Below are positions 3,918-8,475 of a stretch of 64,000 nt of DNA, in pieces. Below the pieces are notes generated by a model. The model made no database searches. It saw nothing but the letters and a program-made list of their open reading frames with translations, and had not been told where the DNA came from. The first letter of the stretch is position 1. Each line of letters opens with the position of its first letter. The stretch is from the NCBI RefSeq assembly GCF_032190615.1, contig NZ_JAVLAT010000001.1, positions 558,001 through 622,000 on the forward strand, written 5' to 3'. This DNA comes from Brucella pseudogrignonensis (GTDB lineage Bacteria; Pseudomonadota; Alphaproteobacteria; Rhizobiales; Rhizobiaceae). Made by a program: the position numbers and the translations under genes.

Positions 3918-6710
3918 ATGGCTTCCTCAAAAGACAAATACACTCAGGATTCGCACGACGAAACACGCGGCTTTGGCGAAGCGCCACAGCGCGATTTGTC
4001 AGGCACACCATTCTCGGGCTCGATCTCTGACTGGGCCAAAGACATCGGCGAAGAGGCCGACAAGCCTCAGACGAAAGCCAAAACACCAAAGGCACCCAAG
4101 AAAGTGCCTGAGCGCAGCAAGGAATCATCACGCAGCGCACGCGGCACCTCAATGGGCGGCGCAGCTTCAGCAAAAGAACGCGCTGCAGCAGGCCTTAATC
4201 CTGTCTCCGGTCTCGACATCAGCCTTGAAGACGCAACCGCGCTAAACCCGACAGGCGCGACGGCGACCGTCAAGGCACTGTCCGATCTGATTGAATCCGG
4301 CAATCCGCTATTCAAGAACGGCGAACTCTGGACACCGCACCGCCCAGCCCGGCCACCCAAGTCAGAAGGTGGTATTGCGATCCAGATGGAATCGAATTTC
4401 GAGCCATCGGGCGATCAGCCGACCGCTATTCGCGATCTGGTCAGCGGTCTGGAAGATCAGGACCGCACGCAGGTTCTGCTTGGCGTCACCGGCTCGGGTA
4501 AAACCTTCACAATGGCGAAGGTTATTCAGGAAACGCAGCGGCCCGCGCTCATTCTTGCTCCAAATAAAACGCTGGCCGCGCAGCTTTACGGGGAGTTCAA
4601 AAACTTCTTCCCGAACAATGCCGTCGAATATTTCGTTTCTTACTACGATTATTACCAGCCGGAAGCCTATGTGGCGCGCTCAGACACCTATATCGAAAAA
4701 GAATCGACTGTAAACGAACAGATCGACCGGATGCGCCACGCAGCAACGCGTGCGTTGATCGAGCGCGATGACGTTATCATCGTTGCATCTGTATCGTGCA
4801 TTTACGGTATCGGTTCCGTCGAAACCTATACGGCCATGACGTTTGAAATGAAGATTGGCGACCGGCTCGACCAGCGCCAGCTTCTGGCCGATCTTGTGGC
4901 GCAGCAATATAAGCGGCAGGACATCAATTTCGTGCGCGGCTCATTTCGCGTGCGCGGCGATACAATTGAAATCTTCCCTGCCCACTTGGAAGATCGTGCA
5001 TGGCGTATCTCCCTTTTTGGCGATGAAATCGAAAGCATTGCCGAGTTCGACCCACTGACCGCTCAGAAAACCGGCGATTTGCAGTCGGTCAAAATCTACG
5101 CGAATTCGCACTATGTAACACCCCGTCCAACGCTCAATCAGGCGATCAAGTCCATTCAGGAAGAGCTTCAGCACCGCCTTGCAGAATTGACCCGTGCCGG
5201 TCGCCTGCTGGAAGCGCAACGCCTTGAACAGCGCACAAATTTTGACCTTGAAATGTTAGAAGCAACCGGTGTGTGCAACGGCATTGAAAATTATTCACGC
5301 TATCTGACAGGGCGTCAGCCGGGCGAACCGCCGCCGACGCTATTCGAATATATTCCAGACAACGCGCTCGTTTTCCTTGACGAAAGTCACGTCACGGTTC
5401 CGCAGATCGGCGGCATGTATCGCGGCGACTTTCGGCGCAAAGCGACTCTGGCCGAATATGGCTTCCGCCTTCCTTCCTGCATGGATAACCGTCCGCTGCG
5501 CTTTGAGGAATGGGACGCCATGCGTCCGCAGACCATTGCGGTGTCAGCCACGCCGGGTAAATGGGAGATGGAAGAAGCTGGCGGCGTGTTTGCCGAACAG
5601 GTCATCCGCCCGACCGGCCTGATCGATCCGCCAGTGGAAGTGCGCCCTGCCAAAAATCAGGTTGATGATGTGCTGGGCGAAATCCGCGAAACTGCGCGCA
5701 AGGGCTATCGTACGCTCTGCACAGTGCTGACCAAGCGCATGGCGGAAGACCTGACCGAATATCTGCACGAACAGGGTGTGCGGGTGCGTTATATGCACTC
5801 GGACATTGACACGCTGGAACGTATTGAAATCATTCGCGATCTGCGCCTTGGCGCATTCGATGTTCTGGTGGGGATCAACCTGCTGCGCGAAGGTCTCGAC
5901 ATTCCCGAATGCGGTTTCGTCGCCATTCTGGATGCCGACAAGGAAGGTTTCCTGCGTTCGGAAACCTCTCTGGTGCAGACTATCGGTCGTGCGGCCCGTA
6001 ACGTTGACGGCAAGGTCATTCTTTACGCCGACAATATTACCGGCTCGATGCAGCGCGCGATGGATGAAACCAGCCGCCGTCGCGAAAAGCAGGAAGCTTA
6101 CAATCGTGAACATGGCATCACGCCTGCCTCGGTGAAGAAGAATATCTCGGACATCCTCAACTCGGTTTACGAGCAGGATCACGTCCGCGCCGATATTTCG
6201 GGCTTTGCCGAAGAAGGTGCGATGATGGGTAACAATCTCGCCGCCCATCTTGAACATCTCGAAAAGCAAATGCGCGATGCCGCAGCCGATCTTGATTTTG
6301 AAAAGGCGGCCCGCCTTCGTGATGAGGTCAAGCGCCTGCGCGAAATGGAACTGGCGATTGCCGACGACCCGATGGCCCGGGAAGTGGAGCTTGAGAGCCC
6401 AGTAACCGGACGAACCAAGGGACGCCATAATGCTGGTCGCAAGATGCACCGGACTGTTGATGACGAGCCGAAAAAGTCACTCTTCGCCAAGCCGTCGCTC
6501 GACAATATGGGACCGGGCACCGACATGGCCAAACCACTGTTCCGCAAGAACACGCTGGATGAGATGACCGTGAAGCGGACGGAAAAGCCAGCGGGTGCGG
6601 ACGATACTCTGATCCGCCGCGAACGTTCAGGTATCGGCTCGTATGAAGATCCGGCTGAAACCGCCCGCAAAAAGCGTCGCCCCGGCAAGACTGGCCGACC
6701 GGGGCGGTAA
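3918..6710 (+). CDS. uvrB: UvrB, excinuclease ABC subunit B
   Basis: UvrB is the DNA-damage-verifying helicase of nucleotide excision repair, handed DNA by UvrA and followed by UvrC. The core begins near residue 155 ([17 protein letters not shown]). Walker A is [10 protein letters not shown] near residue 190, and the beta-hairpin region [11 protein letters not shown] follows. Later come the helicase motifs ([29 protein letters not shown]) and a C-terminal UVR motif ([18 protein letters not shown]). At about 930 residues it is much longer than E. coli UvrB (about 670). The excess is a charged N-terminal extension of about 150 residues and a basic C-terminal tail of about 100, as seen in many Rhizobiales. 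A GTG six bases upstream (3912) is an alternative start; neither has a good ribosome binding site. Confidence 0.97.
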
Positions 6711-6726: not shown

Positions 6727-8202
6727 TTACAAATATTTGGCTATAGCTTTATTCAGATCATTTTGAATTATAGTCTTTGTCATTCTACGATAGCGACGAG
6801 TTTGCTGAGAAAAAATTGGATTAAATCCAAGGAACGTTTTGCTGGCTCGTTGCGCGTATTTAACGAAGGTCCAGCTCTCAAAGCCATTATCTTGGTTGAA
6901 CGTTACATTTTGTAACATTTTCTTTTCGAGGTATGCATGCGGATAATTATTTCTTATCCATAATTCACCCTTATCTTTATACCTAACAACAAAACGCCAA
7001 GCATGTCCGTATGACTTCCGCTTTAATTTCCGCCAAGCATTAGATAATGTCGAATTTTTTATTTTCACATCTTGACCATCGTATTCAAATCCAAGGTATT
7101 CCAAGCCATTTTTCGAAGCCTCTCCAAACAAATGACTGTAATCAAGATTTGTAGTAGAATTCTTGAATTCTCCTATGCACACCTTTTTATCTTGAATTCT
7201 AAGGCGTGCGCCGTATTTCTTAATGTTCGCTTGAAGATAATTCTTCATACCATCAAAGGTAGTATTTTCTCTAACAGGTATTACAACAATTATGTCGTCC
7301 GAGTACCTACGATACATTCCGCCCAATGCCTGGACGTAATCGTTCACTTCCTTATCAAAATCTATAAGATAGAAATTGGCAACAAGATCGGAGATCGGCG
7401 TCCCTTGCGGGATACCAAACTCAAATCCATTCTTCTGTATTAGGCTTGGGTAATTACCATCTGCCCCCGCAATAACATTTCTAAACTCCTGCGGTGAACA
7501 TATCTGCCTATAACCATTTGCCCTCAGGGTATCAACACGGCGTTGACGCGCCTCTCTGCGCACTCCAACGTTAACTTTCTCCGTCAGCTTTAGGCGAGAA
7601 AATATTTTATCCACGTCCACAATACAATATTTTGTTAAAGACTTGAAAACAGCCAAGTGATCCCTTGGAAGGGTTTCGCCAAGGAGCTCCTCCCAAATGT
7701 ATTTAATTATTTTATGATCTAAACTTTCAAAATAAGACTTAATATCAACGACTGTCACTATACAATTGCCAGTATTTTTGATGAATGAAAATACATCTTT
7801 AGCGATATCTATATTACATTTATTGCCGCCGCTAGCTTTTGGAATACGCCTATAGGCGACGGGAACATCAGCTATTCCCCTGCGAATTAAAGCTTCTTCG
7901 TAACACTTTGAAAGCTTGTGCCTATAGCACGCATATATTGCAGCATCTAACCGTGAAGCATACCTTAAGGAGCGGACTTTTGTTTTCTTAGGTTTTTTAG
8001 GATCTCTGAACTTAGTCCACTTCTCATAAAACCGCAGAAGTGGAAAGAATGGGTGCTGCGATACTGCGAGAGGATCATTAGCTAACTTTTGAATTTTTTT
8101 AAGAGATATAGCTCTATCAAAGTGTATATAACGCTTTATATCTTTTTCTCTTGGTTCCCACTCATCAACAGAGTGAGTGGAGGCAATAACACCACTAGGC
8201 AT
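6727..8202 (-). CDS. Defence-type reverse transcriptase (DRT2-like)
   Basis: This is a 491-residue RNA-directed DNA polymerase. Motif A is VVDIKSYF with Asp at 153, motif B is FGIPQGTPISD, and the catalytic YSDD box is at 300-303 (YRRYSDDIIVV). The N-terminal half has the pattern K-x-R-x-x-x-YAS-x-LD followed by AYRRIP, which I associate with the Unknown Group/Abi-type defence RTs annotated as Drt2. It lacks the HNH and maturase X domains of group II introns and shows no retron signature that I recognise. ATG 8202 follows GGAGGT at a long 12-nt spacing. The gene is AT-rich, stands alone between uvrB and a Kazal lipoprotein, and is preceded by a structured RNA region. RT identity is certain; the DRT2 type is my best guess, with DRT9-like or an unnamed class as alternatives. 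Confidence 0.85.
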   Translation of the reverse strand: MPSGVIASTHSVDEWEPREKDIKRYIHFDRAISLKKIQKLANDPLAVSQHPFFPLLRFYEKWTKFRDPKKPKKTKVRSLRYASRLDAAIYACYRHKLSKCYEEALIRRGIADVPVAYRRIPKASGGNKCNIDIAKDVFSFIKNTGNCIVTVVDIKSYFESLDHKIIKYIWEELLGETLPRDHLAVFKSLTKYCIVDVDKIFSRLKLTEKVNVGVRREARQRRVDTLRANGYRQICSPQEFRNVIAGADGNYPSLIQKNGFEFGIPQGTPISDLVANFYLIDFDKEVNDYVQALGGMYRRYSDDIIVVIPVRENTTFDGMKNYLQANIKKYGARLRIQDKKVCIGEFKNSTTNLDYSHLFGEASKNGLEYLGFEYDGQDVKIKNSTLSNAWRKLKRKSYGHAWRFVVRYKDKGELWIRNNYPHAYLEKKMLQNVTFNQDNGFESWTFVKYAQRASKTFLGFNPIFSQQTRRYRRMTKTIIQNDLNKAIAKYL

Positions 8203-8470
8203 GGTACAGTTACCACCTCCGCCATTTCAGCATGGCATTCGCGCCACTATCGTCCTTATTCAACGTTATATGTCATACTGTCGGTATGGAATTGATGATG
8301 GCCATGACCAGCATCGTAATACAGTTGCTCATATCGAAATTAACCATAGGAGTTGTCCCATTGATTAAGATGATATTGACTGTCTTTCCCATTGACAGTG
8401 TAAACACTCGACTCACGCGCTACCGTGATCCGGACTATCCGAAGACGTTTCCCGTCTGGGTGCTCCCATG
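8203..8470 (-). ncRNA. Structured RNA upstream of the reverse transcriptase (candidate DRT template RNA)
   Basis: About 270 nt lie between the promoter-like sequence and the RT start and hold many hairpins read on the minus strand. AGACG/CGTCT pairs at 8457-8443 with loop GGAAA. CGGA/TCCG pairs at 8441-8431. TCACG/CGTGA pairs at 8428-8413. ACTGTC/GACAGT pairs at 8399-8379. A nested hairpin has outer arms ACTGT (8325-8321) and ACAGT (8281-8277) and inner arms GATG-x-TGG and CCA-x-CATC at 8315-8294. GCCAT/ATGGC pairs at 8236-8221, just before the RT ribosome binding site. Length and position fit the template RNAs described for DRT2. The exact ends are unknown; the RNA could also be read through into the RT mRNA. 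Confidence 0.6.
8282..8401 (-). other. 120-nt ACA-to-ACA segment with a stop-free frame (candidate neo template)
   Basis: On the minus strand an ACA lies at 8401-8399 and another at 8281-8279, exactly 120 nt apart. Reading in the frame of these ACA codons gives 40 sense codons without a stop, beginning TLSMGKTVNI and ending AIINSIP. In the genome this frame is closed by TAG at 8422-8420 upstream and TGA at 8275-8273 downstream, two codons past the second ACA. If an RT copied this segment repeatedly by jumping between the ACA sites, the joined copies would read endlessly as 40-residue repeats rich in Ile, Met, Asn and Val. This is how Neo is made in DRT2 systems; here it is an inference. Two further in-frame ACA codons inside the segment offer shorter units. 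Confidence 0.5.
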
Positions 8471-8475
8471 AGTTA

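What the first reader, a model, noticed from the sequence alone, without database searches (positions are those of the whole stretch)
8279..8422. 120-nt ACA-bounded, stop-free segment: candidate neo-encoding template
Read on the minus strand, two ACA triplets are exactly 120 nt apart (8401 and 8281). The frame in phase with them has no stop over 40 codons, whereas TAG at 8422-8420 and TGA at 8275-8273 close it just outside. Rolling-circle reverse transcription between the ACA sites would yield an endless frame of 40-residue repeats (TLSMGKTV at the start, INSIP at the end). From memory, the characterised Klebsiella DRT2 has a similar repeat length and ACA-based jumping. A stop-free frame of this length is not rare by chance (roughly 15 percent for one frame), so the strength lies in the combination with ACA phase, hairpins and gene context.
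Basis: partly seen in the sequence, partly recalled or inferred. Interest (0 to 1): 0.93.

Follow-up and report, generated by a model that had tools for sequence, protein, structure and literature searches.

The report
DRT2 gene-making template, different junction
This stretch of a Brucella-group bacterium is very probably the RNA template from which a phage-defence enzyme builds a hidden, endlessly repeating gene, but on the other strand, with other ends and with another jump signal than first read, which suggests that this odd way of making genes is more varied than the case worked out in Klebsiella.

Summary
The letters are as reported: two minus-strand ACAs 120 nt apart with an open sense frame. 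That is chance-level, and the nearest homologue lacks the second ACA. Yet the locus is very probably a neo template. The gene at 6727-8202 (-) is a DRT2 reverse transcriptase (PADLOC Drt2; best fold match KpDRT2). In published DRT2, Neo is read antisense to the ncRNA: here the + strand. There, joining AAC (8403-8405) to the base after AAC (8262-8264) gives a 141-nt unit, 8265-8405, that sets -35 TTGACA 17 bp before -10 CATACT and is open in one frame. In 13 of 13 readable loci of this RT clade the same architecture recurs: units of 120-141 nt, all multiples of three, 0 stops in 574 codons, Shine-Dalgarno plus start 15-18 codons before the junction in 11. With 16 or 18 bp spacing 0 of 13 lengths would be multiples of three. 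The slip motif is GUU/GUY-like, not ACA; on two KpDRT2-like E. coli loci the same rule returns ACA and 117 nt. Right idea, wrong strand, ends and signal: a new variant of DRT2. Expression, cDNA and defence are untested.

The parts
6727..8202 (-). DRT2 (UG2-type) reverse transcriptase, 491 aa as opened from the ATG at 8202
   Evidence: PADLOC Drt2 E 3.8e-130, first non-Drt2 family 2.6e-17; RVT_1; PDB KpDRT2 9c0i E 5.8e-54; predicted fold best match 9c0i, Foldseek E 5.6e-28, TM 0.68/0.77. D153, D302 and D303 invariant in the nine-row alignment
8203..8475 (-). Predicted DRT2 ncRNA (ends approximate, inferred): 5' hairpins, template, 3' part
   Evidence: Strongly conserved block against B. tritici, with indels on both sides of the template and none in it; single-sequence folds. 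Transcription not tested
8265..8405 (+). Template/neo repeat unit, 141 nt = 47 codons, read on the + strand: VICHTVGMELMMAMTSIVIQLLISKLTIGVVPLIKMILTVFPIDSVN
   Evidence: same length and register in L001; 13 of 13 clade loci open in this register with a length that is a multiple of three
8392..8397 (+). -35 element TTGACA near the end of the cDNA repeat
   Evidence: TTGACA in 12 of 13 clade loci (TTGCCA in L015)
8274..8279 (+). -10 element CATACT near the start of the cDNA repeat (TATACT in B. tritici); 17 bp from the -35 only when repeats are joined
8403..8405 (-). 5' slip motif, GUU in the ncRNA (cDNA 3' end AAC)
   Evidence: AAC in 12 of 13, AAG in L016
8262..8264 (-). 3' slip motif (alignment copy), GUU in the ncRNA
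   Evidence: On the cDNA strand AAC in 5, GAC in 5, GAG, TAC and GAT in 1 each of 13; last two bases match the 5' copy in 12 of 13
8348..8352 (+). Shine-Dalgarno-like AGGAG in front of the predicted neo start
8361..8363 (+). Predicted neo start codon TTG (8 nt after AGGAG), 45 nt before the junction; an in-frame ATG follows at 8370-8372
   Evidence: the ATG read
8176..8223 (-). 3' hairpin (14 pairs, one mismatch); overlaps the first codons of the RT ORF as opened
   Evidence: 2 of 100 shuffles of the stretch reach its score. Less clear in most other loci

Best explanation
This is a DRT2 phage-defence cassette of a divergent clade, found here in alphaproteobacteria and one viral contig. Inferred working: RT and ncRNA are made from the minus strand; the RT copies the ncRNA template 8265-8405, reaches the 5' GUU (cDNA ending in AAC), and the cDNA end slips to the GUU/GUY just 3' of the template and primes another round. 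The cDNA becomes a chain of 141-nt repeats. Once double-stranded, each junction places TTGACA 17 bp before CATACT/TATACT, so RNA polymerase transcribes the strand antisense to the ncRNA. Ribosomes start at the AGGAG-preceded codon 15 codons before the next junction and read an endless, hydrophobic 47-residue repeat (Neo) that arrests the infected cell. Shown by sequence: RT identity, frame, promoter geometry, their conservation. Taken from KpDRT2 by homology: cDNA synthesis, phage trigger, second strand, toxicity. Inferred: the slip triplet.
For: RT identity. Rule seen by eye in 4 loci (WIN, L001, L011, L012), then run on the clade: 13 of 13 rebuild a -35/-10 pair at 17 bp. Total mismatches 0 in 8, 1 in 4, 2 in 1 locus, against 4, 183 and 936 of 2600 dinucleotide shuffles. 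All 13 lengths (120-141) are multiples of three; with the same elements 16 or 18 bp would give 0 of 13 (14 and 20 bp give 13 by arithmetic). Of six frames only this one is open in all 13 (0 stops in 574 codons; others 55, 23, 13, 16, 37); within-unit shuffles give mean 27.6, minimum 13 stops. SD plus start in this frame in 11 of 13, in the other two frames of the strand 0 of 13 (sense frames 1, 2 and 1 of 13); codon shuffles mean 2.4, maximum 7, 0 of 2000 reach 11. The 306 codons upstream of those starts hold 0 stops (shuffle mean 15.8, minimum 5), which a joined repeat explains and a linear gene does not. Positive control: the rule returns TGT/ACA and 117 nt in two KpDRT2-like E. coli loci, as published. 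RT tree: the 13 form one clade, 100/100. Neo is more hydrophobic than random codons of like composition in 13 of 13, z 2 or more in 8.
Against: No RNA, cDNA or phenotype data. dN/dS in the two closest pairs does not single out the neo frame. The slip triplet is not proven: only two bases match in several loci and L048 matches poorly. The window's -10 is CATACT, one off, and its start codon a TTG. The promoter consensus is of E. coli type; alphaproteobacterial promoters are often less strict (recalled). No conserved promoter for the ncRNA was found. The 3' hairpin beats shuffles (5 or fewer of 100) in only 5 of 13 loci. No Rfam family matches. On the opposite strand of the 13 regions the same rule still gives a multiple of three with an open frame in 3 of 13, though with 2-3 mismatches. 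Outside the clade the rule gave a clean top answer in 6 of 12 DRT2 loci.
Confidence: 0.85

Rival explanations
1. One reading: template between the two ACAs (8401, 8281), 120 nt, Neo read in ncRNA sense from the minus strand.
For: The letters are there and ACA is the published KpDRT2 signal. The 120-nt unit is also open in one antisense frame.
Against: Neo is antisense in the published systems; the second ACA is absent in B. tritici; 9 of 13 clade loci have no flanking ACA pair; only a weak -10-like GATGAT at 16 bp; the sense frames over the 141-type unit are all shut in 7 of 13.
Confidence: 0.03
2. An ordinary small + strand gene lies antisense to the ncRNA and is translated from the chromosome.
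For: In the window the frame stays open 22 codons before and 21 after the unit. Annotators called such a gene in two Rhizobiaceae plasmids outside the clade.
Against: In 5 of 13 loci the linear frame stops one codon after the unit; the frame is open upstream of its own start codon in 11 of 11; unit lengths differ only in threes, while window and B. tritici differ by 14-nt and 2-nt indels in the flanks; in the chromosome the -35 lies downstream of the -10.
Confidence: 0.05
3. DRT2 ncRNA whose cDNA works without being translated; the open frame is a by-product of composition.
For: dN/dS is not decisive.
Against: Stops are absent from one of six frames only, lengths are in threes, and SD plus start recur in that frame.
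Confidence: 0.05

Closest known systems
KpDRT2 (Klebsiella pneumoniae DRT2; PMC11100668, PMC12039810; PDB 9c0i)
   Same: RT family and best fold match; template directly upstream of and in the sense of the RT; unit of about 120 nt in threes; Neo antisense to the ncRNA; -35/-10 at 17 bp only across the repeat junction; hydrophobic repeat
   Different: RT about 29% identical to 9c0i in the structural alignment; cDNA end AAC 8 nt after the -35 and GUU/GUY-like motif in place of ACA/ACA; units 120-141 nt; -10 mostly TATACT; Neo register xxVYTV...LDSxN
DRT2 of E. coli chromosomes (L050, L051)
   Same: Same junction architecture by the same rule
   Different: ACA signal, 117-nt units, RT outside the window's clade
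DRT9 / DRT10 (class 2 UG reverse transcriptases)
   Same: ncRNA-templated repetitive cDNA (abstracts and passages)
   Different: Poly-A or short tandem-repeat cDNA; the window's RT fits Drt2 far better and matches 9c0i well before DRT9

Membership tests
DRT2 defence system | Reverse transcriptase of the Drt2/UG2 family with catalytic Asp triad | tested here: met
DRT2 defence system | Structured ncRNA directly upstream, same strand | tested here: inconclusive
   Block conserved with B. tritici and a 3' hairpin in each locus, but it beats shuffles in only 5 of 13; transcription not testable
DRT2 defence system | -35/-10 promoter rebuilt at 17 bp across the repeat junction, antisense to the ncRNA | tested here: met
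   13 of 13 clade loci; promoter activity not tested
DRT2 defence system | Repeat a multiple of three with one stop-free frame across the junction | tested here: met
   13 of 13
DRT2 defence system | Concatemeric cDNA, phage-triggered second strand, Neo-dependent growth arrest | not testable with these tools
   Needs cells
KpDRT2-type (ACA) subgroup | ACA-1 and ACA-2 flanking the template | tested here: not met
   No shared ACA pair: 9 of 13 have none, B. tritici only one at 128 nt
KpDRT2-type (ACA) subgroup | RT branches with the KpDRT2-like RTs | tested here: not met
   The 13 form a separate clade, 100/100; the tree holds E. coli relatives of KpDRT2, not KpDRT2 itself

The most novel reading that the evidence does not exclude
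The template-jump signal of DRT2 is not fixed. What selection keeps is the junction geometry (17-bp promoter, frame in threes, start 15-18 codons before the junction), while the paired slip motif drifts as a matched pair between clades: ACA in the KpDRT2 type, GUU/GUY here (CUU with CUC in L016), and, on single loci, CGUAA in L049 and UAUUA in L044. Anchoring on the junction promoter instead of ACA would then reveal hidden neo genes in DRT2 clades in which they could not be annotated.
Probability: 0.6. Interest if true: 0.75.

Novelty: new variant of a known kind. Interest (0 to 1): 0.63.

Why it matters
The discoverers of DRT2 wrote that in more divergent clades Neo annotation was harder and that other mechanisms might operate (PMC11100668, section 10). 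Whether this clade is among theirs I could not see, since their supplement was not seen. Here a divergent clade yields a complete predicted neo in 13 of 13 loci once the junction promoter, not ACA, is the anchor. That gives a testable prediction per locus (repeat length and junction), a comparison of slip motifs, and diverse Neo sequences for work on how Neo arrests cells. It also shows coding sequence hidden opposite an ncRNA that ordinary gene calling misses or reports as a hypothetical protein.

Tried and rejected
ACA-to-ACA units in the 13 loci: rejected as above. dN/dS in WIN/L001 and L011/L042: inconclusive. Rfam, gathering and relaxed: no match. Consensus folding of the 5' flank and, by the alignment tool, of the 3' flank gave no pairs; RNAalifold on another alignment gave a 10-pair stem for the 3' flank. 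Hairpins were then sought locus by locus, and a shuffle control shows them to be weak evidence: 5 or fewer of 100 shuffles reach the score in WIN, L001, L016, L017 and L027 only. ncRNA promoter search: nothing conserved. Viral contigs: the single protein found nothing, the alignment 3 loci, one of them (L042) in the clade. Phage records: 3 distant relatives, not followed.

Rows left out of the 13: L018 (upstream masked with N); L037 (second A. brasilense strain, same unit as L012); L002, L003, L014, L038-L041, L047 (duplicates); L030 (upstream cut by the record end); L043 (31% identical, 302 nt upstream; scanned, no hit); L004-L010, L020-L025, L028 and L029 (duplicates, second halves, or partial matches at about 1e-32 or weaker, not analysed). 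Twelve loci outside the clade: clean top answer in L050, L051, L013, L036, L049 and L044; L032 only at 16 bp; L034 not at 17 bp; L031, L033, L035 and L046 none.

The rule was seen by eye in 4 loci and changed slightly between (length bounds 105-160; ties broken by likeness of the 8 bases before the junction, which decided L015 and L048). Six more loci were looked at; only L042, L045 and L048 were unseen until.

Papers: PMC11100668 passages and section 10; PMC12039810, PMC12596737 and PMC12632851 passages; all others search listings. Supplements and the journal version of PMC11100668 were not seen. That this clade's signal is not described in print rests only on searches.

Full report
Observation. 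The two minus-strand ACA triplets (8401-8399 and 8281-8279) lie 120 nt apart, and the sense frame between them is open and closed just outside, as stated. Such a pair is not unusual: 2 of the 4 ACA pairs at 100-150 nt in 8203-8475, and 14 of 116 identical-triplet pairs, are multiples of three with an open sense frame.

What the gene is. The ORF at 6727-8202 (-) is Drt2 by PADLOC (E 3.8e-130; first non-Drt2 family 2.6e-17), carries RVT_1, and its nearest solved structure by sequence is KpDRT2 9c0i (E 5.8e-54). An AlphaFold2 model (mean pLDDT 79.1) finds 9c0i first in the PDB (E 5.6e-28, TM 0.68/0.77), the next match being at 1e-8. The cassette sits between uvrB and a Kazal-domain gene. Of 19 same-genus loci around the Kazal gene (L053-L071), 7 have uvrB and the Kazal gene close together without the cassette (about 15 to 130 bp in L053, L056, L057 and L059, up to about 200 bp in L063-L065), L070 (B. 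tritici) carries the cassette there, L071 has another insert, and 10 showed no uvrB within the fetched stretch. Of 35 same-genus genomes searched, the window's included, 2 hold this full-length RT; G006 has distant partial matches. That the genus is Brucella in the wide sense is inferred from B. tritici (L001), whose contig has the same length as that of G017, a genome of the same genus.

The published mechanism, read in passages (PMC11100668, PMC12039810). DRT2 copies an ncRNA template repeatedly; joined repeats form a promoter with 17-bp spacing across the junction; Neo is encoded antisense to the ncRNA; repeats are multiples of three; ACA triplets flank the template in relatives of KpDRT2. 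Here the RT and so the ncRNA are on the minus strand, so Neo must be sought on the plus strand.

Architecture. On the + strand TTGACA lies at 8392-8397 and CATACT (TATACT in B. tritici) at 8274-8279. They come to 17 bp if the cDNA ending ...TTGACAGTGTAAAC is followed by GTTATATGT-CATACT, that is, if it slips from AAC at 8403-8405 to AAC at 8262-8264. The unit is then 8265-8405, 141 nt, open in a single frame (VICHTVGMELMMAMTSIVIQLLISKLTIGVVPLIKMILTVFPIDSVN). B. tritici gives the same length and register.

Clade test. I gathered RTs 36-77% identical to the window's: L001 B. tritici, L011 Paracoccus ferrooxidans, L012 Azospirillum brasilense, L042 a viral contig, and unnamed alphaproteobacteria L015, L016, L017, L019, L026, L027, L045, L048. 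The sampling leans on alphaproteobacteria; a draw of 299 genomes of the phylum added none. With the window there are 13 regions. The best -35/-10 pair at 17 bp gives lengths 141, 141, 141, 132, 138, 123, 135, 123, 129, 120, 141, 129, 129 (order WIN, L001, L011, L012, L015, L016, L017, L019, L026, L027, L042, L045, L048). All are multiples of three; the same elements at 16 or 18 bp would give 0 of 13. All 13 are open in the same register relative to the promoter. Stops per frame over 574 codons: 0 in this frame; 55 and 23 in the other two of the strand; 13, 16 and 37 in the sense frames. Shuffled units have a mean of 27.6 stops, minimum 13; loci open by chance mean 1.75, maximum 6 of 13. In 2600 shuffled regions 2108 held some pair, 701 of these gave a multiple of three and 148 also an open frame in this register. 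On the opposite strand of the 13 regions the rule found a pair with at most one mismatch in 1, and a multiple of three with an open frame in 3.

Start signals. AGGA, GGAG or GAGG followed at 4-11 nt by ATG, GTG or TTG in the neo frame occurs in 11 of 13 loci, at one start each, 45-54 nt before the junction; in the other two frames of that strand in 0 of 13. Codon-shuffled units reach at most 7. The 306 codons that precede these starts within the unit have no stop. A gene read from the chromosome would have no need of that; a joined repeat would. In 5 of 13 loci the linear frame stops one codon after the unit.

Slip motif. The cDNA end is AAC in 12 of 13 and AAG in L016. The second copy is AAC in 5, GAC in 5, GAG in L016, TAC in L027, GAT in L048. 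[quoted passage not shown] L016 has C for G in both copies. The last two bases agree in 12 of 13. As a control the rule was run on two E. coli DRT2 loci close to KpDRT2 (E 8e-167 and 1e-170 to 9c0i): it returned TGT/ACA, 117 nt, open frame, the published state (most repeats 117 nt). The RT tree puts the 13 in one clade, support 100/100, apart from the E. coli and Photobacterium RTs.

Other support and limits. A hairpin with a score of 9-13 follows the template in each of the 13 loci, but only in 5 do 5 or fewer of 100 shuffles reach its score, so the RNA fold is weakly supported here. Neo is more hydrophobic than random codons of like composition in 13 of 13 (z 1.2 to 3.1). A single repeat is modelled as one long helix (mean pLDDT 75.7 but pTM 0.38), which says little. 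dN/dS does not single out the neo frame. Outside the clade 6 of 12 loci gave a clean answer and the rest did not. No expression, cDNA or phage data exist here.

Conclusion. The locus is a DRT2 cassette of a clade whose slip motif differs from the published one, with a 47-residue Neo repeat predicted on the + strand.

Noticed in passing
L034:1159-1287 and L036:1153-1287 (minus): Rhizobium and Neorhizobium plasmids carry an annotated 'hypothetical protein' antisense and upstream of drt2; in L036 its N-terminal part is the linear slice of a predicted neo (129-nt unit, 1195-1323), in L034 it is a closely similar protein.
   Followed up: partly
L049 and L044, upstream of the RT: More distant DRT2 loci solve with other slip sequences (TTACG, 126 nt; TAATA, 150 nt), which suggests that the motif drifts by clade.
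   Followed up: partly
window:8176-8223: The 3' hairpin overlaps the first codons of the RT ORF as opened from the ATG at 8202, whereas in L011 and L012 it ends before the RT start; ncRNA maturation or the true RT start may differ here.
   Followed up: no
L019 / G093:C1:108936-110368: This clade member's RT has a TGA inside its second half, yet the neo unit and junction promoter are intact.
   Followed up: no
L071 (G023), about 688-1427: At the same uvrB-Kazal site another species has a different insert of about 700 bp, with a second copy of the last 32 bp of the uvrB match (window 6677-6708) at its far side; the site may be an insertion hot spot.
   Followed up: no
L042: A viral contig carries a clade member whose RT branches with the Paracoccus one, so the cassette may travel with prophages.
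   Followed up: no
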